Source: Clostridiaceae bacterium Marseille-Q4143
GTDB taxonomy: Bacteria; Bacillota; Clostridia; Lachnospirales; Lachnospiraceae
Reading direction: 5' to 3'
Assembly: GCA_018228645.1 (NCBI GenBank)
Contig: CP073693.1
Span: 620,001 to 684,000 of the forward strand
Length of the DNA stretch: 64,000 nt
In this document: positions 1-15,380 of the stretch, piece after piece
How positions within the stretch are numbered: position 1 is the first letter of the stretch
Layout: each line of letters begins with the position of its first letter
Made by a program: the position numbers and the translations under genes
The notes under the pieces: model-generated
Databases searched by the model: none
What the model saw: the letters and a program-made list of their open reading frames with translations, nothing else
Told to the model about the DNA's origin: nothing

Positions 1-308
1 TCCTTCATGGGCTTTCCGTCCTTCCCCAGCTTGGGCGCACCCCTTTGGAGCATTTTTCCGCACTCCACCAGAATTGTTCCCTTCGGGTCCGTCACAACAT
101 AGGAGCTGTGCATCTGCATCAGGTTGGGTTTCAGCCAGAATCGGGTCTTACCGGAACCGGAGCCGCCAATCACCAGTACATTTTTGTTTCTGGCAGTCTT
201 GGGGTCCTTGGGGCGGCTGTTCATGGTCAGGCTCTCCGTTTTCGTCAGAATCACATTGTTCTGAAATACAGGATCAACGTAAGGTGCAATATCCTCACGG
301 GTTCCCCA
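1..308 (-). pseudogene. VirD4/TcpA-type coupling protein, downstream piece (split gene, runs off window)
   Basis: The minus strand reads a coupling-protein segment starting W-G-T-R-E-D-I-A-P-Y. It continues through NNVILTKTESLTMNSRPKDP to the Walker A motif IGGSGSGKTRF and then VVTDPKGT. This is the nucleotide-binding core of the T4SS coupling ATPase that delivers the relaxase-DNA complex to the conjugation channel. The frame continues past position 1. Going upstream, the first non-native codon is at 309-311 and an in-frame stop lies at 321-323 inside the inserted element, so this piece has no start of its own. Its missing N-terminus is at 10318-10617. Confidence 0.9.
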
Positions 309-312
309 TGAA
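304..312. other. Left attachment junction (attL) of the inserted element
   Basis: Plus-strand CCCCA (304-308) belongs to the coupling gene; TGAAGCG starting at 309 belongs to the element. The CA at 307-308 is the proposed crossover dinucleotide. The call rests on exact repair of the host reading frame when 309-10317 is removed. Confidence 0.8.
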
Positions 313-373
313 GCGTTTTGTCAAGTGCTTTTCGCAATTTATTGACGCAAAACAGGATTTTTTCAAGAGAAAA

Positions 374-396
374 GCCCCATGCGGTCAACATGGGGC
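374..396 (-). terminator. Terminator after the primase-helicase gene
   Basis: A perfect 8-bp stem, GCCCCATG (374-381) with CATGGGGC (389-396) and a 7-nt loop, followed on the minus strand by TTTTC. It lies 60 bp downstream of the last gene of the mobilization operon and just inside the element's left end, so it would also keep element transcripts from entering the coupling gene. Confidence 0.6.
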
Positions 397-454
397 GAGT
401 TGATAAAGTGAAAGTGCGAAAGTGCAAGGTGCAAAGGCTCTGCGTTTTGCACTT

Positions 455-2338
455 TCATTTTGCAGTTTCGGGCGGCTGCTTCTTCTTGATGAAGTTGTAC
501 CATTGACTTCCAACGCGCCTTGCGCCCAATATGCCGCCCATGCTGCGCTTGGCATTTTGTACCGTTCTTTCGGATATTCCGGCTTCGGCTGCCGCCTTGA
601 CAATATCCTCGCTTGCCATTTCCTTACCGTCTGCAAGTAAATCGAGTATCAACCTTTCCGCTTGCTCGGTCTTGGTTTCGGTGTTGCCGCCTGTGCCGGA
701 CAGCAGTTCATCAGCGGTAATGTCATATTCGCCTATCCATGAAAAGCCGCTTTCCGCGCCCAACGAAAACGCCATAGGCTTACCCTCCGGTGCAAGGGAA
801 GATTTGTCGTGAATGATAACGCGCACATTCGGCTCTCGTTTCACGCGCCCTATGAGCAGCACACTACGAGCGGCGGCTCGGAAGTCGATAGAGCCTAATC
901 CCCGGTATGCGCTCTGACCTCCGGCAGCTTTGTTCAAGTGCCCGATAAGCACAACGGCACACCCGGTACGCTCTGCAACTTCGGCAAGGCGGCGAAAGAT
1001 AGGGCGTATTTCGTTTGCCTTGTTCATATCCGTTTTTTCGCCTACATACGCCTGTATGGGGTCAAGGATTATAAGACGCGCCCCGGTCTGCCGGATTGCC
1101 CTTTCTATGCGTTCATCGGATAAGGACAATTCCTGTTTGCCCTCGTCAATGACAAGTACCCGGTCAAGGTCTGCGTCCGCTTCCATAAGGCGCGGCTTGA
1201 CGGTATCGCCCAAACCGTCCTCTGCGGTCTGATAGATAACATTAAAAGGCTCATGCTCTGCCATAGCCGGAAAGGGCTTGCGGTTGGTACAGGCGGCGCA
1301 AAGGCGCAGGGCAAGGGTGGTTTTTCCCTCGCCGGGGTTGCCCTGTACGATTGTTACCTTTCCAAAAGGGATATACGGCTCCCATAGCCATTCAACGGTC
1401 TGTGTGTCAACCTCGCTCATGCGGATAATTTCAACGGTTTCTTCCTGTTGCGGCTCACGCAAGCCATAGACAGCTTCGCGCAGATATTTTCCGTCTGTAA
1501 TTTCCTCTTTACGCTGTAAAACCTCGTTCCAGTCTTTGAACAACGGTACAAGGCGATTGACGGTGTAGCCTTGGGGGATAATGCTGTTAAGGCGGCTGCA
1601 AGCGTCTGTCCCGGCTTTGTCGCTGTCAAGGCAGAGATAGACGGTCTTGATATTCGGACGGTCAGAGAGAAAACGCAGCAGGGCTTTTTCACTCACGCCG
1701 CCCAATGACAGATAGCTTTGTTTCTGCCATTCCTTTTTGAACAGGCAGAGGAAAGATAACAGGTCAATGGGGGCTTCAAAGACAAAAAGCCTTTCGCCCT
1801 CGCCCCGGTAGCAGAAGTTAAAAGTCTTGTCGCTGCCTTTCACATCAAGCCGGAAGCTGCCCACCGTTCCCCGTTGGTGGGCATATCTCGGTATGCCGCT
1901 TTCATCTCTGCCGACAAATACGGCGTTATGGTGGGCGGCTTCCTCGTAGAGATCGCCGCAGGAAAAGAAAAAGCCCGACACATCTTCATCAATGCGCCGG
2001 GCGGCTGTAAGGTAGTTCCTCGCTGTTTGGTTGTCGGGGCTTTTGGGTGGTAGTCTGAATTGCAGATAGACGGGTGGGGGTGCTTCGCCCCGTTCGCCTA
2101 TCAGCATTTCAACGGCTTCAAGAAAACTTTTGCCGTAAAACTCCATGACAAAATCAATCGGACCGCCGCCTTTGCTCTGGCTGTGCCGATACCATCTGTT
2201 TTCTCTGACCGTCAAGCTGTCGTGCCGTTTCCAACGGTACTCCTGTCCGGCGCGTTCAAGCTGTTCGCCCTGGGCTTGCAGGAATGATACAAGGTCGGTC
2301 TGATTTGCCCGGTCAATCTGTTCTTTGGTGTAGGTCAT
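455..2338 (-). CDS. Toprim/DUF3991 primase fused to RepA-like helicase
   Basis: 627 aa. The N-terminal third is a DUF3991/Toprim primase-like part, with the DLVSFLQAQGE start and LCLDSDKAGTDA near residues 230-245. The middle is a RecA/DnaB-fold ATPase with Walker A GNPGEGKTTLALRL (about 335-348), Walker B LIILDPIQAY and an IGHLNKAAGGQSAYRG stretch, like RepA-type AAA_25 helicases. The C-terminus looks like a winged-helix segment. A role in priming and unwinding the element after transfer, or in plasmid-like replication, is inferred. Its ATG overlaps the relaxase stop (ATGA at 2335-2338), so the two are probably translationally coupled. In related elements these domains are often separate genes. 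Confidence 0.8.
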   Translation of the reverse strand: MTYTKEQIDRANQTDLVSFLQAQGEQLERAGQEYRWKRHDSLTVRENRWYRHSQSKGGGPIDFVMEFYGKSFLEAVEMLIGERGEAPPPVYLQFRLPPKSPDNQTARNYLTAARRIDEDVSGFFFSCGDLYEEAAHHNAVFVGRDESGIPRYAHQRGTVGSFRLDVKGSDKTFNFCYRGEGERLFVFEAPIDLLSFLCLFKKEWQKQSYLSLGGVSEKALLRFLSDRPNIKTVYLCLDSDKAGTDACSRLNSIIPQGYTVNRLVPLFKDWNEVLQRKEEITDGKYLREAVYGLREPQQEETVEIIRMSEVDTQTVEWLWEPYIPFGKVTIVQGNPGEGKTTLALRLCAACTNRKPFPAMAEHEPFNVIYQTAEDGLGDTVKPRLMEADADLDRVLVIDEGKQELSLSDERIERAIRQTGARLIILDPIQAYVGEKTDMNKANEIRPIFRRLAEVAERTGCAVVLIGHLNKAAGGQSAYRGLGSIDFRAAARSVLLIGRVKREPNVRVIIHDKSSLAPEGKPMAFSLGAESGFSWIGEYDITADELLSGTGGNTETKTEQAERLILDLLADGKEMASEDIVKAAAEAGISERTVQNAKRSMGGILGARRVGSQWYNFIKKKQPPETAK

Positions 2339-3849
2339 AGGGAAATATCCTCCTTTTTGCGTCTTGGTGTTTGGTGTGTCTGTTCCTGTGTGCGCTGCTC
2401 GGCTTGCTCTACAATATCAATGCACTTTCGGATTTGCTGTAACTCCTTAACCTCGCTGCGCTTTGTTTTCAGTTCTTCATATTCGCCTGTGGATTGGGCT
2501 TTCAGTTCGTCAAATTCTTTCTGCCACTCGGACACCTTGAAAGACTTTGTACCCTCCGGCAGATTTGCGTGCAGGAAACGGTTGGCGGCGTTCCAGATAA
2601 TGAGGTCGCTTTCGTGGGCTTGCTCAAATTTTTCTCTCTTTTTGCCCCATCCGTTTTTCAGCGTTTTCAGTTCATCGTGAATGGGCTTCAAGCGGTTGTA
2701 GTTGCTGCCATGCTCGATAAACTTTTCCAATGTCCTCATGCGCTTCTGCTTGGCAACAACGCTTGTATTCAGCCGCTTTGCTTCTTCATCAACAGAGGAA
2801 AGGGCAGCGTCCAAATCTTCAAGGGTAGCAATGCCCTTGCTTTGCAGATAGACAATCGCCTTGCTGATTTTTTGCAATTCCCCGGCAGTATGCTGTTGCT
2901 GCCAGCCCTGTGAATACTTCCGGCTTTTCTCTCGTTCAATGCTCAAATACCTTGTAAGCAGCGTGGCAATATCGGGAGAGTGCGGGGCAGCTTGCAGTTG
3001 CTTCTTAGCGGCGAAAACCTCCGCAAGCCATTCTTTCAAGCTGTCGATATAGCCCCGGATTTCCCGCATAAGTCGGTTGGTCTTTTGTATCATGCGGTTG
3101 ATTTCTCCCTTGTCGGTGGCTATGCCTTTCTTCTCCATTTGGGAAGCTGCAACACCCATGTGGACGGTGGGGAGTTCCTCAATACCACGCTCTGCATGGC
3201 TGCGGTGGTCGATACGCTCCGCGCTGCCGCTTCGCTCTAAATAGTCGTTGGCAAGGTCAGCCCACGCCTTGCGCCATAGGTCGGCGTTCTCCTGCCTGTT
3301 CCAGTCCATAAGGTCAACCTTGCGCGTCTTGTATCTGCCGCTTGGCAGCTTTACGCGCTCCCCATTTTCGTCAAGGACATATTCCTTTTTTGACTTCGCC
3401 GCCCATGTGCCTTTTTCATCAAGGGGGCGCATAGTCAAAAGGATATGAGCGTGTGGGTTGCCGTTGCCTGTGTCGTGGATATTGAAGTCGGCGCACATTC
3501 CTTTGGAAACAAATTGAGAGGAACAGTATTCCCGGACAAGGCGGGTCTGTTCCTCTCTTGAAAGTTCAACAGGTAGGGCGATTTCGATTTCCCTCGCAAG
3601 CTGTGAGTTATTCGATTTTTCGATTTGCTCCACGCTGTTCCATAGAATAGAACGGTCAGAGAAAGAGGGTGGGGCATGGGGCGGCAGCATGATTTCAGAA
3701 TGAACAACGCCGCCTTTTCTTGTATAGTCGTGGGTCAGTCCGTCCCACTCGTTTGTCAGCTTCTCTCCGGCGCGGTAGGCTGCTGCGGCTACGGCAGATT
3801 TGCCCTTTCCCCGGCTGACAATCTTAATGCTGCAATGGTAGATTGCGAT
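2335..3849 (-). CDS. MobA/MobL (MobQ-type) relaxase, apparent ATC start
   Basis: 504 aa from the chosen start. The protein begins x-AIYHCSIKIVSRGKGKSA with the AAAYRAG motif, and carries the metal-binding histidine motif GNGNPHAHILLTMRPLD at about residues 120-135, followed by a long coiled-coil tail. It would nick at the oriT-like site just upstream and lead the strand into a host conjugation channel. Family members start with Met exactly where this gene has ATC (3847-3849), 7 nt after a strong GGGAGG ribosome site; no ATG or GTG fits. In-frame TTG codons about 10 codons upstream lack a ribosome site. The gene is transcribed toward the primase and overlaps it by 4 nt. Confidence 0.85.
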   Translation of the reverse strand: MAIYHCSIKIVSRGKGKSAVAAAAYRAGEKLTNEWDGLTHDYTRKGGVVHSEIMLPPHAPPSFSDRSILWNSVEQIEKSNNSQLAREIEIALPVELSREEQTRLVREYCSSQFVSKGMCADFNIHDTGNGNPHAHILLTMRPLDEKGTWAAKSKKEYVLDENGERVKLPSGRYKTRKVDLMDWNRQENADLWRKAWADLANDYLERSGSAERIDHRSHAERGIEELPTVHMGVAASQMEKKGIATDKGEINRMIQKTNRLMREIRGYIDSLKEWLAEVFAAKKQLQAAPHSPDIATLLTRYLSIEREKSRKYSQGWQQQHTAGELQKISKAIVYLQSKGIATLEDLDAALSSVDEEAKRLNTSVVAKQKRMRTLEKFIEHGSNYNRLKPIHDELKTLKNGWGKKREKFEQAHESDLIIWNAANRFLHANLPEGTKSFKVSEWQKEFDELKAQSTGEYEELKTKRSEVKELQQIRKCIDIVEQAEQRTQEQTHQTPRRKKEDISL

Positions 3850-3958
3850 AGTATCACCTCCCGATACGGTCAACAAAACCCCATGAAAGTGAATAGCTTG
3901 CAAAGCAAGGTGTTCGCTTTCGTGGGGTACACAAAAGGGTAGACAGCGCAAGCTGTCG

Positions 3959-3981
3959 CAGGGAAAGTGTAGGTTTCCCTG
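3959..3981. repeat. Inverted repeat upstream of the relaxase gene
   Basis: A perfect 8-bp palindrome with a 7-nt spacer (CAGGGAAA at 3959-3966, TTTCCCTG at 3974-3981) in the 214-bp gap between the DUF3847 and relaxase genes. A second small GC-rich hairpin follows at about 3984-3997. These may be relaxase or accessory-protein sites of the transfer origin, or they may control mob expression. The rest of the gap shows no coding signal. Confidence 0.45.
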
Positions 3982-4049
3982 TCGCGGCGCAAGCCGCCAA
4001 TCTCTGCACAAGGCAATAATGCCCGGTGCGGAGATAAAGCCCTCGGCAG

Positions 4050-4090
4050 AGCGCACACGCCCGTTAGGGTGTATAAGTGCGCCCTTGTGT
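4050..4090 (+). other. oriT: Candidate oriT with MobQ-type nic sequence
   Basis: The plus strand reads TAAGTGCGCCCTT at 4074-4086, matching the nic-region core shared by RSF1010/R1162 and Gram-positive MobQ plasmids (TAAGTGCGCCCT). Immediately 5' is an imperfect hairpin, ACACGCCC (4055-4062), loop GTTA, GGGTGT (4067-4072), the usual arrangement recognised by this relaxase family. It lies just upstream of the mobL gene and overlaps the last codons of the DUF3847 gene. The nick position is inferred from the family. Confidence 0.75.
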
Positions 4091-4399
4091 GCAAGGGTAA
4101 TTCTTCGGTGTCGCTTCTCCGGCTCGTTTTCTCAAAAACTCCTGCGCTTTGTCGCTGAAAACCGCGGTGTAGAGGAAGTCGCGGGCTTCCTGTTCTGACA
4201 TATCAATGAGTGCCGGGACAAGGCTTTCAAGGTAGCCGCCCCGCGAACAAAGACGGTGGTTGCGCTCCTTGCGCTTCTCAATGGCAAGTTTGCGGTCAAG
4301 CATTTTGTTCCTGTTCTCATACTGCCGGATTTTCTTCTGTGTCAGTTCCATTTCGGCGTTACATTCCTCGATGGTGGTCGGTGGTTTTTTCTTCGACAT
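4064..4399 (-). CDS. DUF3847 family protein
   Basis: 111 aa. A short charged protein with an N-terminal coiled coil (MELTQKKIRQYENRNKML, heavy in Lys/Arg/Glu) and a compact C-terminal part (LVPALIDMSEQEARDFLYTA). It matches the DUF3847 family, found next to MobA/MobL relaxases in Firmicutes elements, so an accessory role in relaxosome assembly or mob regulation is likely but unproven. The start has a good AAGGAGGG site. Its final codons are written in the oriT sequence, so the C-terminus may be set by DNA function. Confidence 0.7.
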   Translation of the reverse strand: MSKKKPPTTIEECNAEMELTQKKIRQYENRNKMLDRKLAIEKRKERNHRLCSRGGYLESLVPALIDMSEQEARDFLYTAVFSDKAQEFLRKRAGEATPKNYPCTQGRTYTP

Positions 4400-4433
4400 G
4401 GTAGCCCTCCTTTTTGATTTTTAGTAAAAGAAA

Positions 4434-4467
4434 AGGGCGGCTACTTCGGTTTGGAAATAGTCGCCCT
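4434..4467 (-). terminator. Hairpin plus U-tract ahead of the DUF3847 gene
   Basis: Stem AGGGCG-CTA / TAG-CGCCCT with one mismatch and a loop of about 14 nt, followed on the minus strand by CTTTTCTTTT. It sits between the membrane-protein gene and the DUF3847 gene, so it could end transcripts from the cargo genes or attenuate mob transcription. Confidence 0.5.
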
Positions 4468-4501
4468 GTTGGGGAATTATGTTATTGTTATTTGAATAAT
4501 A

Positions 4502-4876
4502 TTATTCTGCCGCGTCTGTGTTACTTTTATCTGCTTTCTTCATTTTCAAGGAGCCCAAAATAAAGACAGCTCCGAAAATGAAACAAAGGACAGACCAGAT
4601 AGCAAGGTCAGAGAAGCTACCGTAATTTACAATTCCCAGCAGTCCGCCCAACAGATAGAATACTCCGGCAACAATTCCGCCGCCTTTGCTCTTTCGGGTT
4701 GCTACTCCAACGATGCCTGCAATCAGCATACAGAAAGCAAGCAACATTCCTGATGTTCCGCTTACTTCGCCGTTATCTGCTAAAGCATTTCCTAATCCGG
4801 CAGCGCAAGATTGAAAAGCTACTAAAACAAATAAAACCATGCTGATAATTCCGATTACTAATTTTGCCGTTTTCAT
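4502..4876 (-). CDS. Small four-helix membrane protein
   Basis: 124 aa from the ATG at 4876, which follows GAGGTG; an in-frame GTG three codons earlier is less likely. Four hydrophobic segments are visible: residues about 4-25, 40-58, 68-85 and 90-108. They are separated by short loops, one with the polar RKSKGGG sequence, and the tail is charged (KMKKADKSNTDAAE). It does not match a family I can name; the layout is like DUF4190/TM2-type small membrane proteins. It directly follows the lipoprotein gene (18-bp gap), so the two are probably co-expressed cargo. Confidence 0.6.
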   Translation of the reverse strand: MKTAKLVIGIISMVLFVLVAFQSCAAGLGNALADNGEVSGTSGMLLAFCMLIAGIVGVATRKSKGGGIVAGVFYLLGGLLGIVNYGSFSDLAIWSVLCFIFGAVFILGSLKMKKADKSNTDAAE

Positions 4877-4894
4877 GTTGCACACCTCATCTCG

Positions 4895-5800
4895 TTACGG
4901 ATTTAATGTAATTACCTCATTTGCAAAATCTTCGCCCATAAAATCATCAGCATCGTATGCTCTAAACAGGACTTCGATTTCTTCCACTTCGGTAATTCCG
5001 TTTTCCTCTAAAGTTGTATCAGACCATGCCATAGAACTAAATGCACATTTTCCGGCAGAAACAGAAGTTGCATAGAATGGGTCTGCCATAAAGCCGTTTA
5101 CAGATGCGTCATCAACGCTGAACATTACCGTTTTGTCTGTCTTGTTCAGCAAGAACAGATTGGCAGTATAGCCCCATATCTCATCATCTTCATAGCCTGT
5201 TACGATAACAGTAACATAATCATTATCGATAATCACATTATCAGTAGCCTGTGCTTCTCTCACAAATGCAACAGCGTTTTCTTCTCCGTATGGATAGACA
5301 TGGATTGTTTCCTTTCCAACAGGGTCAGCAGACCAATCATTGCTATCATACACCTTGAAAGTCAATTCAATATCTGTGTATTCAACAATACCATTTTCCT
5401 CAAGAGTATCGGTGCTAAAGTTGATTTCTTCGTTAGCCTTTTTGCCAGCAGCTACCTCGCTTGCAAACATTGGATCGCACTGAACACCATTGATGGAAGC
5501 ACTCTCGACAGAGAACATATAGGTTTTCTCTGTGGACTTGTTTTCAAGCTGTGCTTTCAGAGTGTAGCCCCACATATTATCGGGGTCGATTTCGGTAATT
5601 TTTACCGCACACTCTGCGTTGTCAATGGCAACAACTTCCTCAAATACGATTTGATTTTCGGTGTTGTCGTTTTCGGTGCTTTCTTCATTTTGAGAAGAAG
5701 CGGGGGCATCGTCAGATGCGTCAGGTGTCGCTTCTCCGCCACAAGCTGCAAGAGATAGCACTAAAGCAAGCGAAAGAAGCAAGGTTACAAGTTTTTTCAT
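4895..5800 (-). CDS. Lipoprotein with two tandem Ig-like repeats
   Basis: 301 aa. A signal peptide with lipobox LAAC (Cys20) is followed by an acidic Ser/Asp/Glu linker (about 21-50). Two homologous domains come next (about 55-165 and 180-295), each with WGYT, a T-x-MFSV-x-x-ASxNG block and DTLEENGI. The repeat marks an internal duplication. The domain resembles the extracellular beta-sandwich proteins common in Clostridia, with no enzymatic motif. The protein should be anchored outside the membrane and be tied to the small membrane protein behind it. Its place between erm(B) and the mobilization genes makes it cargo of the mobile element. Function unknown. Confidence 0.7.
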   Translation of the reverse strand: MKKLVTLLLSLALVLSLAACGGEATPDASDDAPASSQNEESTENDNTENQIVFEEVVAIDNAECAVKITEIDPDNMWGYTLKAQLENKSTEKTYMFSVESASINGVQCDPMFASEVAAGKKANEEINFSTDTLEENGIVEYTDIELTFKVYDSNDWSADPVGKETIHVYPYGEENAVAFVREAQATDNVIIDNDYVTVIVTGYEDDEIWGYTANLFLLNKTDKTVMFSVDDASVNGFMADPFYATSVSAGKCAFSSMAWSDTTLEENGITEVEEIEVLFRAYDADDFMGEDFANEVITLNP

Positions 5801-5823
5801 TCCATTCCCTCCGTTATTAAAAA

Positions 5824-5856
5824 GTGTAACTTTCCAAATTTAAAAAAGCGACTCAT
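5824..5856 (-). pseudogene. Truncated short ORF normally found after erm(B)
   Basis: Five bases after the erm(B) stop an ATG opens M-S-R-F-F-K-F-G-K-L-H, which I recognise from memory as the start of the small ORF behind erm(B) in Tn917/pAMbeta1-type cassettes. After 11 codons the sequence changes to the lipoprotein's own upstream region. This marks one edge of the erm(B) cassette. The match relies on memory, not on an alignment. Confidence 0.4.
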
Positions 5857-5860
5857 AGAA

Positions 5861-6598
5861 TTATTTCCTCCCGTTAAATAATAGATAACTATTAAAAATA
5901 GACAATACTTGCTCATAAGTAATGGTACTTAAATTGTTTACTTTGGCGTGTTTCATTGCTTGATGAAACTGATTTTTAGTAAACAGTTGACGATATTCTC
6001 GATTGACCCATTTTGAAACAAAGTACGTATATAGCTTCCAATATTTATCTGGAACATCTGTGGTATGGCGGGTAAGTTTTATTAAGACACTGTTTACTTT
6101 TGGTTTAGGATGAAAGCATTCCGCTGGCAGCTTAAGCAATTGCTGAATCGAGACTTGAGTGTGCAAGAGCAACCCTAGTGTTCGGTGAATATCCAAGGTA
6201 CGCTTGTAGAATCCTTCTTCAACAATCAGATAGATGTCAGACGCACGGCTTTCAAAAACCACTTTTTTAATAATTTGTGTGCTTAAATGGTAAGGAATAT
6301 TCCCAACAATTTTATACCTCTGTTTGTTAGGGAATTGAAACTGTAGAATATCTTGGTGAATTAAAGTGACACGAGTATTCAGTTTTAATTTTTCTGACGA
6401 TAAGTTGAATAGATGACTGTCTAATTCAATAGACGTTACCTGTTTACTTATTTTAGCCAGTTTCGTCGTTAAATGCCCTTTACCTGTTCCAATTTCGTAA
6501 ACGGTATCGGTTTCTTTTAAATTCAATTGTTTTATTATTTGGTTGAGTACTTTTTCACTCGTTAAAAAGTTTTGAGAATATTTTATATTTTTGTTCAT
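5861..6598 (-). CDS. erm(B): Erm(B) 23S rRNA adenine-N6 dimethyltransferase
   Basis: 245 aa, full length. It methylates A2058 of 23S rRNA and gives macrolide-lincosamide-streptogramin B resistance. It begins [20 protein letters not shown], has the SAM-binding motif [15 protein letters not shown] (about residues 34-48) and the catalytic-type motif VGNIPYHLS (about 98-106), and matches Erm(B) as I know it apart from the known N/S variation at that NIPY position. The start follows AGGAG at normal spacing. Expression is controlled by the leader peptide and hairpins upstream. The AT-rich composition contrasts with the neighbouring GC-richer mobilization genes, as expected for an imported resistance cassette. 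Confidence 0.98.
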
Positions 6599-6627
6599 GT
6601 AATCTCTCCTGAAGTGATTACATCTAT

Positions 6628-6657
6628 AAACAAATACAGAAGTTAAACGATTTGTTT
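6628..6657 (-). promoter_or_regulatory. erm(B) translation-attenuator hairpin
   Basis: AAACAAAT (6628-6635) pairs with ATTTGTTT (6650-6657) in the leader mRNA just upstream of the erm(B) ribosome site, between the leader peptide and the methylase. It fits the known scheme in which ribosome stalling on the leader rearranges the RNA and exposes the methylase start. Confidence 0.6.
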
Positions 6658-6722
6658 GTAATTTTAGTTATCTGTTTAAAAAGTCATAAGATTAGTCACT
6701 GGTAGGAATTAATCTAACGTAT

Positions 6723-6806
6723 TTATTTATCTGCGTAATCACTGTTTTTAGTCTGTTTCAAAACAGTAGATGTTTTATCTACATTACGCATTTGGAATAC
6801 CAACAT
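6723..6806 (-). CDS. ermBL: erm(B) leader peptide
   Basis: 27 codons, starting MLVFQMRNVDKTSTVLKQTK and ending YADK. This is the intact ErmBL peptide. In the known mechanism, macrolide-bound ribosomes stall at the RNVDK region, near Asp10, and switch on erm(B) translation. It has its own strong ribosome site (GAAGGAGGG) and lies 124 bp upstream of the erm(B) start. An intact leader implies inducible rather than constitutive resistance. Confidence 0.93.
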   Translation of the reverse strand: MLVFQMRNVDKTSTVLKQTKNSDYADK

Positions 6807-6838
6807 GACGAATCCCTCCTTCTTATCCCTTTAGTAAC

Positions 6839-6981
6839 GTGTACTTTCCTGTAAACGCATTTTATCGACAAATTAGCCGGGATATAAACGAATATTTACA
6901 TTTCAAGACTTGAAAAACGCCGTCTGAAGAAGTATAATATTAAATACCTATAAGCAATAGGCGGTTTACAGGAAAGTACAC
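6839..6981. repeat. 18-bp inverted repeat flanking the erm(B) promoter region
   Basis: GTGTACTTTCCTGTAAAC at 6839-6856 recurs as its exact reverse complement at 6964-6981, framing 107 bp of AT-rich sequence that should contain the erm(B) promoter. The right copy also forms half of the terminator at 6956-7002. These could be remnants of an older transposon end or a resolvase site; I cannot decide from sequence alone. Confidence 0.6.
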
Positions 6982-7001
6982 CTTTCTGTAAAACCGCCTA
7001 T

Positions 7002-7002
<1 letters not shown>
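6956..7002. terminator. Strong hairpin after the resolvase gene
   Basis: AATAGGCGGTTTACAGGAAAG (6956-6976) pairs almost perfectly with CTTTCTGTAAAACCGCCTATT (6982-7002), with a 5-nt loop. It overlaps the resolvase stop codon and lies just upstream of the erm(B) promoter region, so it can insulate erm(B) from read-through. It lacks a long U-run. Confidence 0.6.
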
Positions 7003-7616
<614 letters not shown>

Positions 7617-7683
7617 TTATCCTCCTGTTCGTTTTACATAGACATCAACCGTCCTTACCTAATAATTTTACTGTATCTTTGTG

Positions 7684-7986
7684 TCATGGCTTGCTTTTCC
7701 CGGCTGAAATACCATGCTTCTTTGCATAGTCGCTTGCCGCCTGTCTGCGTTCCTCGCTGTATGGTGCGGTCAGACGGAAAGAGAAGCGTCCCTTTGCAAT
7801 CTCAAACTCCATACAGCCCGTTTCCGGGTCGCTGTCGGTCAGCTTACAGACAGAGGGGAAGCGGCGGCTGTACGCGGTCAGCCTGTTCTTCAAGTCGGTG
7901 TTGTGGGTGCGGATATGGATAAGGGGGTCTTTCTCGTCAAACCAAATATCGGTGGTCTTTTCCTGCTTTTTCAGTCCTGTTTTCAT
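7684..7986 (-). CDS. Conserved hypothetical protein of the mobile element
   Basis: 100 aa from the ATG at 7986, which has a strong AAGGAG site. It is a small soluble protein with DIWFDEKDPLIHIRTHNTDL, an LKNRLTAYSRRFPS block and a lysine-rich end; proteins like this occur beside TnpW/TnpX genes in gut Firmicutes elements, with no known function. The same frame stays open 67 codons upstream, including a CPYC motif and part of the overlap with tnpW, but no start with a ribosome site is seen there. Confidence 0.6.
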   Translation of the reverse strand: MKTGLKKQEKTTDIWFDEKDPLIHIRTHNTDLKNRLTAYSRRFPSVCKLTDSDPETGCMEFEIAKGRFSFRLTAPYSEERRQAASDYAKKHGISAGKSKP

Positions 7987-8140
7987 AAACTCTCCTTTCT
8001 GCGCCCCTGTTACGCAGTAGGGGCATTTTTCGGGTGTTTTCTTCGGCTCTTGACTTGGGAAAAACGGCGTTTTTTCAATAGAAAATGCTCTGGCGATACA
8101 TTCCTCGTCCAGAGTGTTCCAATCGTCAAATATTCCGTTT

Positions 8141-8335
8141 TTACGGCTCTTGACCGTCAGACGCAGAAAAATGCGAATAGTCGGCAAGTATCGCTTTCAG
8201 CAGCTTGTCGCGGAATGTTTCTGCGCTTCTGTGATTGAAAAACAACTCCGCAACGATGGTCTGTCCGTTCCGCTGTGTTGTGATGATACCATCCGGCTGC
8301 TTCTGCGCGGTGGTTGTGGTTTTCTTTTCTGTCAT
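8141..8335 (-). CDS. tnpW: TnpW-family transposon protein
   Basis: 64 aa: MTEKKTTTTAQKQPDGIITT at the start, then RNGQTIVAELFFNHRSAETFRDKLLKAI in two pieces. This is the TnpW family named from Tn4451, always a small protein beside the large serine recombinase; its role is not established. The start follows GGAAGGAG. It lies directly downstream of the recombinase gene, separated by a terminator-like hairpin. Confidence 0.8.
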   Translation of the reverse strand: MTEKKTTTTAQKQPDGIITTQRNGQTIVAELFFNHRSAETFRDKLLKAILADYSHFSASDGQEP

Positions 8336-8366
8336 TGGGTCACTCCTTCCTTTGGGTGCAAAAAAA

Positions 8367-8390
8367 GGATTTCCCATAGTTGGAAAATCC
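8367..8390 (-). terminator. Hairpin and U7 between the recombinase and tnpW genes
   Basis: GGATTTCC / GGAAAATCC stem (8367-8390), followed on the minus strand by a run of seven T. It should end most recombinase transcripts, so tnpW would depend on read-through or its own promoter. Confidence 0.65.
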
Positions 8391-8414
8391 CTTTCTGCTG
8401 TCGGTTATTCTGTT

Positions 8415-10262
8415 TTACGATACGGGCAGCGCAGCGGCTTGCGCCTTTCGCTTTGCCCGATATTCCCGCGCCTTGATGCGTTCATACTCCCGGCGTTTTT
8501 CAAGGTTTTTCGCCCGGTATTCCTTTGAGTAGTTCCGATGATAAGCGCGGCTCTTTTCCTTTTGGGCTTCTTCGATTTTCTCCCGCATTTGCCGGATTTC
8601 TTCCTCTGTCGGCTCTGCAAGCTGTGTCAGTTCGTTTTCAAACTTGCCGATATAGCTGAAATATATCCCGATATGCTGAACAGCTTGTTTTGCCCTTTTC
8701 TTATCGCGCTCATGCACTTCAATTCTGCTGATAAATTCATTGAGAATGGCGGGGGTAAGGTCGGTAAAGGCGGCGTAGCGTTCTATCAGCTTCAAAAACT
8801 TATGCGCCCATCCTCCTGCGTCCTCAAACGCGGATAACTGTTCTTTGAGTTCTGCAAGTTCCGCTTTCAGCGTATAGTATTCCTCCGAATATTTCTGTGA
8901 CATTTGCTCGTATCGGTCTTGTGGGATAGCACCGAGGGCGTTATCCTCGTAGAGTTTATTCAGCACCTTGTCAATCTGTTCAAGGCGTGTTGTAATTTGC
9001 GGAATACGCTTCTGCTGTTTTTTGCTCTTGTCCGTCTGCTGCATATCAAGGTTTTTTCGGACTAATGCTTCAAATTCCTCCCGGTTGCTTATGGAGTATT
9101 CTGCAACTTTTTTCAGAACATCCGCGATAGTCTGCATGACTAAATCAGCGTCTATGATGTGCGGGGAATTGCATTTGGGATTTTTGGCTTTGCCCTTGTG
9201 GTACTCGCTGCAAAAGGCAACATGACGCTTGCCGCCGTTCCTGTAATCTATGCGAATGTGCATTTTTGCGCCGCAGTCTTTACAGAACATCAAGCCCGAC
9301 AAAGGGTGGATTTCTCCGTCCCCGTTAGGGCGTCTGACAGGCGCGTTTTCCAAAATCCGCTGTACGGTTTCAAAGTCGGCGCGGTCGATAATCGGCTCAT
9401 GCACATTCTCGGTTATCTGCCATTCGCTTTTATCTACATAGTGGTTGCGCTTGTCCCGAAAATGCTTTGTGGTCTTGAAATTGACAACATCACCACAATA
9501 CTCCTGCCTTGTGAGTATCTTGGTTAAGGTTGCTTTGTTCCATTTATAGCGATTTTCCTCGTTCAGCGGTCTGCTTTTCGCTGTCCCTCTGTCGTGCTGT
9601 TTGAGGTAGAACGTAGGCGTGAGGATTTGCTCGTTTTTGAGATATACGGCAATTTGGTTTCTGTTCTTCCCGCCGATAAACAGACGGAAAATCAAGCGTA
9701 CCACTTCGGCGGCTTCCTCGTCGATTATCCAAAAATCCTTGTTGTTCGGGTCTTTCATATATCCGTATGGGGCTTCGGTGGCGATGGGTTTGCCGCTTGC
9801 ACCCTTGGTCCTGATACCCGTTTTTACTTTCTTGCTGATGTCCTTTGCGTACCACTCCGACATGATATTGATAAAGGGCGCAAACTCCAATGTATCGGGA
9901 TTGTCGCTGTCTATGCCGTTATTGACCGCGATAAAGCGGACATTGTTCCGTCTGAATACCTCCATTGCATTGCCGACTTGGAGATAATCACGCCCCCAGC
10001 GCGTCAGGTCTTTCATAATGCAGACGCCTATTTTTCCGTTTTCCACATCCTCCATCATGCGGGAATAGGCAGAGCGGTCAAAGAACCTGCCGCTTTCGTC
10101 ATCGTCAATGTAGTGCCGGATATTGGTTAATCTCTGCTGTTGGGCGTACCGTTCCAGAAATGCCTTTTGGTTTACAATGCTGTTGCTCTCGCCGCCATCT
10201 CTGTCCTCGTCCCCGACGGAAAGGCGGGAGTAAAGGGCTGTAATTTTATTATATTCGTTCAT
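8415..10262 (-). CDS. tnpX: TnpX-type large serine recombinase (integrase of the 10-kb element)
   Basis: 615 aa from ATG 10262 (7 nt after AGGAGG). Domains: resolvase catalytic domain (about 1-150) with the serine region ALYSRLSVGDEDRDG and TRWGRDYLQVG; recombinase domain (about 165-290) with APYGYMKDPNN; a zinc ribbon CKDCGAKMHIRI...FCSEYHKGKAKNPKC (about 350-400); a coiled coil; and a very basic C-terminus. This architecture matches TnpX/TndX, which catalyse excision and insertion of Tn4451/Tn5397-class elements. An upstream in-frame start at 10343 would run back through attR into the host gene, so it was not used. The short distance to the right end suggests the attachment site overlaps its promoter region. 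Confidence 0.92.
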   Translation of the reverse strand: MNEYNKITALYSRLSVGDEDRDGGESNSIVNQKAFLERYAQQQRLTNIRHYIDDDESGRFFDRSAYSRMMEDVENGKIGVCIMKDLTRWGRDYLQVGNAMEVFRRNNVRFIAVNNGIDSDNPDTLEFAPFINIMSEWYAKDISKKVKTGIRTKGASGKPIATEAPYGYMKDPNNKDFWIIDEEAAEVVRLIFRLFIGGKNRNQIAVYLKNEQILTPTFYLKQHDRGTAKSRPLNEENRYKWNKATLTKILTRQEYCGDVVNFKTTKHFRDKRNHYVDKSEWQITENVHEPIIDRADFETVQRILENAPVRRPNGDGEIHPLSGLMFCKDCGAKMHIRIDYRNGGKRHVAFCSEYHKGKAKNPKCNSPHIIDADLVMQTIADVLKKVAEYSISNREEFEALVRKNLDMQQTDKSKKQQKRIPQITTRLEQIDKVLNKLYEDNALGAIPQDRYEQMSQKYSEEYYTLKAELAELKEQLSAFEDAGGWAHKFLKLIERYAAFTDLTPAILNEFISRIEVHERDKKRAKQAVQHIGIYFSYIGKFENELTQLAEPTEEEIRQMREKIEEAQKEKSRAYHRNYSKEYRAKNLEKRREYERIKAREYRAKRKAQAAALPVS

Positions 10263-10311
10263 GTGCATACCTCCTGCGTCCACATAGTTTTCCTTACAGT
10301 TAAGATTATGC

Positions 10312-10320
10312 ACCACAGCG
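10312..10320. other. Right attachment junction (attR) of the inserted element
   Basis: Element sequence ends ...GCACCA, followed by the second CA (10316-10317), and the coupling gene resumes with GCGGGCC at 10318. The recombinase gene starts only about 55 bp inside this end, the usual place for an integrase gene next to its attachment site. Confidence 0.8.
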
Positions 10321-14569: not shown

Positions 14570-14599
14570 GCCGCCACTTCAAAATCATAAAGTGACGGC
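14570..14599 (-). terminator. Hairpin and U5 upstream of parA
   Basis: GCCGCCACTT (14570-14579) pairs with AAGTGACGGC (14590-14599), one mismatch, followed on the minus strand by TTTTTC. It lies 51 bp before the parA start, inside what should be the 5' leader. Confidence 0.6.
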
Positions 14600-14633
14600 C
14601 CTTTCTAATGCCGGAATCTCTGAAACAAAAAAA

Positions 14634-14659
14634 GCACCCAGTTATTTGTTACTGAGTGC
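14634..14659 (-). terminator. Second hairpin and U7 upstream of parA
   Basis: GCACCCAGT (14634-14642) pairs with ACTGAGTGC (14651-14659), one mismatch; the minus strand then has seven T. Together with the hairpin at 14570 it forms a tandem terminator/attenuator pair before the ICE operon. Confidence 0.65.
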
Positions 14660-14779
14660 CTGCATTAGAATCGTATTTAATTGTTCAGATTTGGTCAGAT
14701 TATGCCAAACCCTCCAGCGAAAAATCCGGTGTCTGAGAGTGCCAAATCACCCTCAAAAATACCCCCGAAATTGCTCTCT

Positions 14780-14854
14780 GGTTGTCCTATTTTTTAACCA
14801 CTAAGGCCGTTTTTTGACCCCATTTTTGCCGGTTGTCCTATATTTAACCACTAA
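14780..14854. repeat. Direct repeats near the ICE end
   Basis: GGTTGTCCTA is followed by a T-rich stretch and TTAACCACTAA at 14780-14804, and nearly the same sequence occurs at 14831-14854, 51 bp apart. TTTGGTCA/TGCCAAA motifs occur on both sides (about 14690-14710 and 14879-14900). They could be integrase arm sites, iterons or partition sites. The region 14660-14922 contains no gene. Confidence 0.5.
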
Positions 14855-14922
14855 AACTTGGGTGAAATCGGCTCTCGTTTTGCCAAATTTGGTCAAACCA
14901 TATCAGCCCGTTTAGATATAGC

Positions 14923-14957
14923 AAAAGCCCGGAAAACCTTGATTTTCCGGGCTTTTT
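14923..14957. terminator. rpsI terminator (bidirectional)
   Basis: AAAAGCCCGGAAAA (14923-14936) pairs perfectly with TTTTCCGGGCTTTT (14943-14956), 6-nt loop, with A/T runs on both sides. It closes the rplM-rpsI operon, 30 bp after rpsI, and marks where ordinary chromosome begins. Confidence 0.85.
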
Positions 14958-14987
14958 GAACCATTTTGATATAGTCTGAGCAGTCGA

Positions 14988-15380
14988 TTATCGCTTGCTG
15001 AACTGCGGAGCGCGACGAGCTGCTTTGAGACCGTATTTTTTACGCTCTTTCATTCTCGGGTCACGAGTCAGGAATCCTGCTTTTTTCAGGATCGGTCTGT
15101 ACTCCGGATCAGCCTGTACAAGTGCACGAGCGATACCGTGTCTTACAGCACCTGCCTGTCCGGTGTAACCACCACCACGAACATTTACCAGAACGTCGAA
15201 TTTCTCGGTGTTCTCAGTAGCTGCCAGCGGCTGACGAACGATAACTTTCAGAGTCTCCAGTCCGAAATACTCATCGATGCTTCTTTTATTTACAGTAATG
15301 TTGCCGGTTCCCGGTACCAGATAAACTCTGGCGATGGATTTCTTTCTTCTTCCGGTTCCATAGAATTTTGTCTTAGCCAT
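14988..15380 (-). CDS. rpsI: 30S ribosomal protein S9
   Basis: 130 aa, normal length. It has the family N-terminus [39 protein letters not shown] and the conserved basic tail ending ...APQFSKR, which reaches the P-site tRNA. It is co-transcribed with rplM (28-bp gap). Its 3' end is intact although a conjugative element sits just downstream. Confidence 0.97.

What the first reader, a model, noticed from the sequence alone, without database searches (positions are those of the whole stretch)
309..10317. erm(B) mobilizable element sits precisely inside the coupling-protein gene of its carrier ICE
Deleting 309-10317 rejoins codons for Gly-Ser-Ala-Arg | Trp-Gly-Thr-Arg without any scar, so both boundaries are read directly. 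The passenger has a relaxase and an oriT-like site but no transfer channel, so it must borrow one. It has landed in the ATPase that feeds substrates to such a channel. While integrated it should disable the ICE; after excision it would restore the ICE's coupling protein, which could then move both elements. Whether this is chance or a strategy (coupling gene as a conserved target) is open.
Basis: partly seen in the sequence, partly recalled or inferred. Interest (0 to 1): 0.85.

Follow-up and report, generated by a model that had tools for sequence, protein, structure and literature searches.

The report
Resistance hitchhiker inside conjugation gene
A 10-kb mobile element carrying an erythromycin-resistance gene sits at one exact, conserved codon of the gene its host conjugative element needs for DNA transfer; relatives in dozens of bacterial genomes sit at the same codon, so this is a targeting strategy of a type already described, not chance.

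Summary
Window 309-10317 is an integrative mobilizable element (IME: large serine recombinase, MobQ relaxase, oriT-like motif, erm(B), no transfer channel found) between the two pieces of a VirD4/TraG coupling gene of an ICE. I did not rejoin the pieces; an uninterrupted natural copy of the same gene exists in another genome.
The open question, chance or strategy, is answered: strategy. Of 80 loci with a close relative of the recombinase, 72 are inserted between the same Arg and Trp codons of EYGSARWG, 2 more fit but their contigs end there, and 6 lie elsewhere. The same 10,009 bp, base for base, sits at that codon of a coupling gene whose N piece is only 43% alike.
The kind is known: streptococcal IMEs and Tn6104 in traG, with the model 'excision repairs the coupling gene and both move' printed in 2017. 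Excision and transfer were not tested here.
Possibly new, and inferred: the recombinase's promoter is split over the element's two ends, and its -10 half can mask the recombinase's ribosome site in read-through RNA, which would make the gene state-dependent.
Verdict: new member of a known kind.

The parts
309..10317 (.). integrative mobilizable element, 10,009 bp; all main genes on the - strand
   Evidence: base-identical copy with the same two borders in L047
10318..10617 (-). upstream (N-terminal) piece of the VirD4/TraG coupling gene; its frame meets a stop at the fourth codon inside the element
   Evidence: alignment to four intact coupling proteins; frame
3..308 (-). downstream piece of the coupling gene with a Walker A-like GGSGSGKT; runs off the window
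   Evidence: NF045973 conju_CD1115, E 5.8e-27, 94.6 bits, below the whole-protein cut-off of 250 because only a piece is present
307..308 (-). TG, one copy of the 2-bp direct repeat (probable crossover core)
   Evidence: right flank starts TGGGG in 41 of 41 loci
10316..10317 (-). TG, other copy of the 2-bp repeat
   Evidence: element starts TG in 70 of 70 loci with an N border
8415..10262 (-). large serine recombinase (615 aa), start codon 55 bp inside the border, same direction as the coupling gene
   Evidence: PF00239, PF07508, PF13408, PF14287
10260..10317 (-). leader of the recombinase gene; bases 5-16 (window 10302-10313) can pair with the ribosome site and the bases before the start codon (10263-10274)
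10305..10310 (-). CATAAT, -10-like half of a split promoter, starts 7 bp inside the border
319..324 (-). TTGACA, -35-like half of the split promoter, ends 10 bp before the other border
8141..8377 (-). TnpW-like small protein
   Evidence: PF14202, 38.0 bits against cut-off 25
7684..8187 (-). ORF of unknown function
   Evidence: no Pfam hit
7002..7613 (-). small resolvase/invertase-type recombinase
   Evidence: PF00239; found in 3 of 80 relatives' loci
5861..6598 (-). erm(B) 23S rRNA methyltransferase
   Evidence: NF012220, 565 bits against cut-off 525
4895..5800 (-). ORF without family (lipoprotein-like start, by eye)
4502..4885 (-). ORF without family (membrane-protein-like, by eye)
4064..4399 (-). 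DUF3847 protein
   Evidence: PF12958
4074..4086 (+). oriT nick-like motif TAAGTGCGCCCTT
   Evidence: exact motif in 62 of the 80 relatives' loci
2335..4056 (-). MobQ relaxase ORF (MobA_MobL; family homology starts near 3849)
   Evidence: PF03389 E 2.1e-98; NF041496 MobQ 277.5 bits against cut-off 200
455..2338 (-). Toprim/AAA replication-type protein
   Evidence: PF13481, PF13155, PF13154
10614..14588 (-). visible part of the carrier ICE next to the coupling gene: DUF3801, DUF5720, DUF6017, DUF5720, ParB, ParA; beyond it rpsI at 14988-15380
   Evidence: a similar order (DUF6017, DUF5348, PcfB, VirD4) in pMG2200; that DUF3801 corresponds to PcfB is recalled

Best explanation
The element is an integrative mobilizable element whose large serine recombinase is specific for one DNA site, the codons of EYGSAR|WG in VirD4-type coupling genes of Tn1549-like ICEs. 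SHOWN by sequence: exact borders; 2-bp TG repeat; same codon and same orientation in 72 of 80 loci; presence of one identical element in ICEs with different coupling genes; a natural uninterrupted copy of the target gene; a TTGACA and a CATAAT on opposite ends of the element whose distances to the borders add up to 17 bp. INFERRED: the coupling protein is cut before its ATPase domain, so the ICE is silent while the element sits there; the recombinase excises the element as a circle, which leaves an intact coupling gene; the element's relaxase nicks its own oriT and uses the coupling protein and channel of that ICE, or of another ICE in the cell, to move; in the new cell it finds the same conserved codon in whatever ICE of this type lives there. 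In the circle the two half-promoters meet in front of the recombinase gene, which would favour prompt re-integration.
For: 80 relatives of the recombinase (best 80 of 192 loci encoding one): N border at the codon in 70, C border only in 2 (L008, L051), contig ends on both sides in 2 (L057, L058, whose remaining letters encode Ala-Arg and Trp), elsewhere in 6. The 70 N pieces fall into 47 groups at 95% identity. Of 65 locus pairs with recombinases at least 99% alike, 47 sit in coupling N pieces under 70% alike; the correlation of the two identities is 0.10 over 2,415 pairs. Element identical over 10,009 of 10,009 bp in L047, and in L001 and L002 but for 782 extra bp and, in L001, one mismatch, in coupling genes whose N pieces are 43-53% alike to the window's. 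Natural empty copy. Intact proteins read through the site. Split promoter 11 of 12 matches in 41 of 41 loci with both borders, against 6-8 of 12 across the integrated left border and 6-9 across the integrated right border. Relaxase and oriT motif. Published model.
Against: No excision, expression or transfer was measured. Six of 80 loci lie outside recognizable coupling genes, so specificity is strong but not absolute. 38 of 48 host genomes hold another uninterrupted site motif (39 matches less G308), so restoring the own ICE is not needed for mobilization. In S. suis an IME in the SNF2 gene of an ICE did not excise and was carried along by the ICE (PMC7168690, passages). The ends with the half-promoters are also the recombinase's sites, so their conservation alone does not prove a promoter. 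The 80 loci are the best-scoring ones, several genomes contribute two, and they are partly related. The relatives share the recombinase and the site, not the whole element: only 3 of 80 carry erm(B), and a relaxase match was found in 59 of 80, at least 80% alike in only 3 (many loci are cut short).
Confidence: 0.82

Rival explanations
1. Chance landing of a low-specificity Tn4451-like recombinase in one gene of one ICE.
For: Tn4451 relatives have low specificity (review); 6 of 80 relatives lie elsewhere.
Against: 72 of 80 at one codon; the 70 N pieces form 47 groups at 95% identity; the right flank starts TGGGG in 41 of 41.
Confidence: 0.02
2. Harmful pirate: the element inactivates the ICE that it occupies more or less for good and is mobilized in trans by other ICEs or plasmids of the cell; the coupling gene is chosen because breaking it costs the cell nothing and silences a competitor for the channel.
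For: 38 of 48 host genomes carry another uninterrupted site motif (39 matches less G308); G001 and G002 have further full-length coupling genes; several coupling genes in the 9 genomes are in pieces; IME_SNF2 did not excise in the test.
Against: In G003, which has the base-identical copy, no full-length VirD4-type coupling gene was found, though the assembly is in contigs and other coupling classes were not searched. Borders are base-perfect and an uninterrupted allele exists, as precise excision requires. Tn6104, in traG by the review's table, forms a circle.
Confidence: 0.3
3. Passive cargo: the ICE moves with the element inside it, using a coupling protein from another element.
For: Transfer with the IME inside was reported for an ICE with IME_SNF2 and for ICESp2905 with two IMEs; in both the broken genes are not the coupling gene.
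Against: Near-identical recombinases sit in quite different coupling genes, and near-identical erm(B) elements sit in ICEs under three genus names, so the element also moves on its own.
Confidence: 0.12

Closest known systems
IME_Sco1050_traG_site1 / site2 and other serine-integrase IMEs of streptococci (Coluzzi 2017 PMC5357655; Guedon 2017 PMC5704250)
   Same: single serine integrase, own relaxase, inserted inside traG (VirD4) of a Tn5252-superfamily ICE, very short direct repeats, same excision-restores-transfer model in print
   Different: their sequences were not compared, so whether their codon is this one is untested; the cargo here is erm(B)
Tn6104 / Tn6105 of Clostridioides difficile R20291 (Brouwer 2011 PMC3158075)
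   Same: mobilizable, TnpX-like recombinase and MobA/MobL gene in Tn6104, 2-bp repeat; in traG by the review's table. Circle shown for Tn6104; the text mentions the empty target, the figure legend says only the joint and the two ends were sequenced. Excision of Tn6105 was not detected
   Different: different cargo; identity of codon not tested; Tn6104 carries a TnpV-like protein, this element a TnpW-like one
Tn4451/Tn4453
   Same: large serine recombinase and a neighbour of the Pfam family named for TnpW; a circle-borne promoter is in the title of Lyras and Rood 2000 (seen only in reference lists)
   Different: Tn4451: numerous GA sites and MobV relaxase; here a TG core, one specific codon and MobQ
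IME_Rho_tet (PMC12904643)
   Same: serine-recombinase IME with a resistance gene in gut Bacillota, often inserted in a conserved ICE gene; almost identical copies in different contexts
   Different: target maff2 (116 of 256 reconstructed sites), cargo tet(W)/tet(32)
State-dependent integrase promoters, ICEKp1 (PMC13023037)
   Same: integrated: transcription from outside, damped by leader stem-loops; excised: promoter from the other end
   Different: tRNA target and a whole promoter at one end rather than two halves; experimentally tested there

Membership tests
IME with serine integrase targeting traG of Tn5252-superfamily ICEs | own integrase and own relaxase | tested here: met
IME with serine integrase targeting traG of Tn5252-superfamily ICEs | no VirB4 or other T4SS gene in the element | tested here: met
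   none among the ten ORFs scanned; three ORFs have no Pfam family
IME with serine integrase targeting traG of Tn5252-superfamily ICEs | internal site of a VirD4 coupling gene, gene disrupted | tested here: met
IME with serine integrase targeting traG of Tn5252-superfamily ICEs | very short direct repeat at the borders | tested here: met
   TG at both borders
IME with serine integrase targeting traG of Tn5252-superfamily ICEs | same codon as published site 1 or site 2 | not tested
   the reference elements were not fetched or compared
IME with serine integrase targeting traG of Tn5252-superfamily ICEs | excision and mobilization | not testable with these tools
   needs cells
Tn4451/TnpX family | large serine recombinase, TnpW-family neighbour | tested here: met
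   PF00239/PF07508/PF14287 and PF14202; no direct comparison with TnpX itself was made; that these are family traits is recalled
Tn4451/TnpX family | GA core and low specificity | tested here: not met
   TG core and one codon; family trait
Tn4451/TnpX family | MobV relaxase | tested here: not met
   MobQ; family trait
Tn4451/TnpX family | promoter formed at the circle joint | tested here: inconclusive
   half-sites with a 17-bp spacing; no expression data
Tn1549-like ICE (carrier) | CD1115-type VirD4 with DUF6017 gene nearby | tested here: met
   the label Tn1549-like for pMG2200 and for this gene set is recalled
Tn1549-like ICE (carrier) | relaxase, VirB4, integrase of the ICE | not testable with these tools
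   beyond the left edge of the window; no genome held

The most novel reading that the evidence does not exclude
The element's left end is a combined promoter and RNA switch that tells the recombinase gene whether the element is integrated. Integrated, only read-through RNA from the ICE's transfer operon covers the gene, and in that RNA the -10 box region pairs with the ribosome site and hides it; in the circle the -35 half from the other end completes a promoter whose RNA should start downstream of that arm, so the ribosome site is freer. Sitting as the next cistron of the coupling gene, the element would then read the ICE's transfer activity and answer only above a threshold, while staying able to re-integrate fast. 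The -35/-10 geometry recurs in two examples (L096, L101) of a second, about 42%-alike recombinase type at another codon of the same gene.
Probability: 0.35. Interest if true: 0.68.

Novelty: new member of a known kind. Interest (0 to 1): 0.45.

Why it matters
It extends a handful of streptococcal and C. difficile cases to loci named for many genera (titles): one family of hitchhiking elements has fixed on conserved codons of the gene that couples DNA to the conjugation channel, so an ICE of this type can be both vehicle and parking place. Near-identical erm(B) copies under three genus names, one of them base-identical to the window's, show that such an element moves independently of its carrier. 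The split-promoter and leader-RNA design, if real, makes the question of how an IME times its excision to its helper directly testable.

Tried and rejected
Chance insertion: rejected by the 80-locus count. Plasmid origin: no plasmid record holds 80% of the element in one place (0 of 1,279 matching records; the rows listed match only the erm(B) stretch), and all 302 plasmid records with a recombinase match are under 60% alike. Crossover at the inner GG instead of TG: it would imply a target that is not Trp-Gly, whereas the four intact proteins read Trp-Gly. Shuffle test of the split promoter in the window alone: 11 of 5,000 shuffles reach the observed score, suggestive, not decisive. Leader RNA: in the window alone the fold is not special (z -1.2, 26 of 200 shuffles as good); the case rests on 69 of 70 loci with at least 3 of 5 ribosome-site bases paired, on one compensating pair (base 19: G-C in 12, C-G in 10, unpaired in 1 of 23 distinct leaders), and on shuffling the first 19 nt (0 of 200 rounds as closed). 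Against it: L077, the locus at this codon with the least similar recombinase, lacks the pairing; in 4 of 22 leaders the ribosome site is not more open from base 20 than from the border; the 23 leaders are related, so one event may explain the pair; I counted the pairs on single folds and did not run the covariation counter on alignment A2. A hairpin in front of the second (site B) recombinase type shows in some folded loci, not in all; not pursued. No viral or metagenome contig scan, no protein-database search and no structure prediction was made.

Neither changes the odds.

Papers: PMC5357655 (passages and section 25), PMC5704250 (passages and section 13), PMC3158075, PMC4701971, PMC7168690, PMC9765467, PMC11389934, PMC12904643 and PMC13023037 (passages only); Lyras and Rood 2000 only as a title in reference lists. 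Whether the leader switch is already in print was looked for only in the listings and in the passages named; this is weak evidence of absence.
Full report
WHAT IS THERE. Window 309-10317 holds, all on the - strand, a large serine recombinase, a TnpW-like protein, a small resolvase, erm(B), three ORFs without family, a DUF3847 protein, a MobQ relaxase and a Toprim/AAA protein. An oriT nick-like 13-mer lies at 4074-4086, upstream of the relaxase homology (1 hit, 0.04 expected with one mismatch allowed); that this motif belongs to MobQ-type origins is recalled, and a paper search for it listed one paper, not opened. No transfer-channel protein was hit. On either side lie the two pieces of a coupling gene of the CD1115 type, followed on the right by genes of an ICE up to ParA at 14588 and then rpsI; the gene set resembles that of pMG2200, and the label Tn1549-like is recalled. 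The window's own genome is not held and its organism is unknown.

THE BORDERS. L047 (Pseudoflavonifractor sp. MSJ-37) carries the same 10,009 bp with 100% identity, starting and stopping at the same two bases, in a coupling gene whose N piece is only 43% identical to the window's. L001 (Ruminococcus turbiniformis) and L002 (Lactonifactor longoviformis) carry it with 782 further bases next to erm(B); both segments are 100% identical in L002, and in L001 one has a single mismatch in 6,517 bp. I did not rejoin the pieces. Four intact coupling proteins from plasmid records read EYGSARWG across the point of insertion. L094, from the genome that also holds L071 (Coprococcus catus; G334), has the window's own gene uninterrupted: the N piece matches 100 of 100 residues, the C piece 101 of 102, on adjacent bases; DNA identity is 96.7% over 1,208 bp on the right side and 98.0% over 299 bp on the left.

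CHANCE OR STRATEGY. The recombinase was sought in a collection of 84,980 species genomes; 192 loci encode a relative and the best 80 (82-100% identical) were kept. Counting all 80: the N piece ends at the Arg codon 55-59 bp before the recombinase start in 70; in 2 more (L008, L051) the contig begins too close but the C piece starts at the Trp codon; in 2 (L057, L058) only 5-6 flanking letters remain on each side and they encode Ala-Arg and Trp; in 6 (L030, L055, L067, L075, L078, L080) the flank is not a recognizable coupling gene. Among the 70, 41 show both borders; in all 72 the recombinase reads in the direction of the coupling gene. The 70 N pieces form 47 groups at 95% identity (single linkage; a few pieces are short; 24 groups at 90%, 3 at 80%, 2 at 70%). 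Recombinase identity hardly predicts coupling-gene identity (r = 0.10 over 2,415 pairs), and 47 of 65 pairs with recombinases at least 99% alike sit in coupling N pieces under 70% alike. So the recombinase family passes between ICEs and lands on the same codon each time. What the relatives share is the recombinase and the site: erm(B) at 80% identity or more occurs in 3 of 80, a TnpW-like match in 77, a relaxase match in 59 (3 at 80% or more), a Toprim/AAA match in 36, the exact oriT-like 13-mer in 62 (many loci are cut short). In an even draw of 291 genomes of the class, the element's left end occurs in 3 genomes (4 places, including G001, on which the draw was centred; the other two, G044 and G081, are the genomes of L019 and L026), against 45 uninterrupted site motifs in 35 genomes; the four occupied places all follow EYGSAR. 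The target is therefore fairly common and mostly free.

IS THERE AN INTACT COUPLING PROTEIN. In 48 genomes that carry the element's end (50 of the 80 loci were submitted), 39 match the uninterrupted site motif; in G308 the only match overlaps the element's own left end, which there starts TGGGG, so 38 remain. Such a gene may still be broken elsewhere. In the three genomes with the near-identical element: G001 and G002 have further full-length coupling genes; in G003 every VirD4-type match is a piece, one broken at this codon and two ending near residue 333-338. G003 is in contigs and other coupling classes were not searched. This cuts both ways: most of these hosts may offer a helper in trans; at least one seems to offer none unless an element leaves.

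A SECOND SITE. In L096 and L101 the coupling gene is broken near residue 330 by elements whose recombinases are 41-42% identical to this one; they read in the same direction and start about 90 bp from the border (border set by eye at a shared GG). L082 and L083 have a coupling-gene piece directly upstream of such a recombinase. The literature describes two traG sites in streptococci; whether these are the same two was not tested.

HOW IT MAY WORK. The model that induction of the ICE provokes excision, that excision restores the coupling gene and that both elements then move was proposed in 2017 for streptococcal IMEs. A circle with a 2-bp repeat was shown for Tn6104 in 2011; the text also mentions the empty target, while the figure legend says only the joint and the two ends were sequenced. 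Against a universal version: an IME in the SNF2 gene did not excise under the conditions tested, and its ICE transferred with it; a second one, in the PPI gene, did not excise either but is defective. My reading adds two sequence features. First, TTGACA ends 10 bp before one border and CATAAT starts 7 bp inside the other; in 41 of 41 loci with both borders the two halves together score 11 of 12 matches to the consensus, against 6-8 across the integrated left border and 6-9 across the integrated right border; for the window alone 11 of 5,000 shuffles do as well; L096 and L101, with another target, keep the same distances with 9 and 10 matches. These ends are also recombination sites, so conservation alone proves nothing about transcription. 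Second, the bases holding the -10 box are complementary to the recombinase's ribosome site and the bases before its start codon: at least 3 of the 5 ribosome-site bases are paired in 69 of 70 loci; mean unpaired probability is 0.24 from the border, 0.45 if the RNA starts at base 20, and 0.55 when the first 19 nt are shuffled (0 of 200 rounds as low; 22 distinct leaders, 18 of them more closed from the border than from base 20). One pair changes on both sides between the two leader types. L077 lacks the pairing, and the window's leader alone is unremarkable against shuffles. RNA from a promoter at the joint would start about base 20 (general knowledge of sigma-70 promoters) and lack the masking arm. 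A comparable design, with leader stem-loops that damp read-through and a promoter from the other end in the excised state, was shown experimentally for ICEKp1 in 2026.

KNOWN OR NEW. The kind (serine-integrase IME inside the VirD4 gene of a Tn5252-superfamily ICE) is known; so is the excision model. This is a new member. It fails two traits of Tn4451 (numerous GA sites; MobV relaxase), so it is not filed there, although it may share the circle-borne promoter. What the calls add: the exact codon, its breadth over loci named for many genera, near-identical erm(B) elements under three genus names with one base-identical to the window's, a natural empty allele, and the possible promoter/RNA switch. 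I did not find the switch in the listings and passages I read, which is weak evidence that it is unreported.

Noticed in passing
L096:1329-18698, L101:1549-19045, L082:1958-4878, L083:2543-4872: Elements with recombinases about 41-43% alike break the same kind of coupling gene at a second point (near residue 330 in L096 and L101), with the recombinase again next to the border and in the same direction.
   Followed up: partly
L001:7545-8326; window 6825/6826: The window and L047 lack 782 bp beside erm(B) that L001 and L002 have; otherwise the elements are virtually identical, so two sub-lineages may circulate.
   Followed up: partly
L078 and L080, just upstream of about 9945: Two of the six off-target insertions: in L078 in a - strand reading frame of an unidentified protein, in L080 in a hydrolase-like frame at a GHSM motif (by eye).
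   Followed up: no
window 14588-14988: The visible ICE genes end between parA and the 3' end of rpsI, a known ICE/IME target; the attachment site was not mapped.
   Followed up: no
window 7002-7613: A match to the small resolvase occurs in 3 of 80 loci, the same number as for erm(B), so it may belong with the erm(B) cargo rather than the backbone.
   Followed up: no
L095:3815-4741 (genome of L047): A further coupling gene ends near residue 338 with no recombinase of this family within the 8.5 kb fetched; what broke it is unknown.
   Followed up: no
NZ_CP017026.1 (L081): A Campylobacter coli plasmid typed as conjugative carries a 42%-alike recombinase with TnpV and an aminoglycoside phosphotransferase-family gene, so this recombinase type has also reached Campylobacterota.
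   Followed up: no
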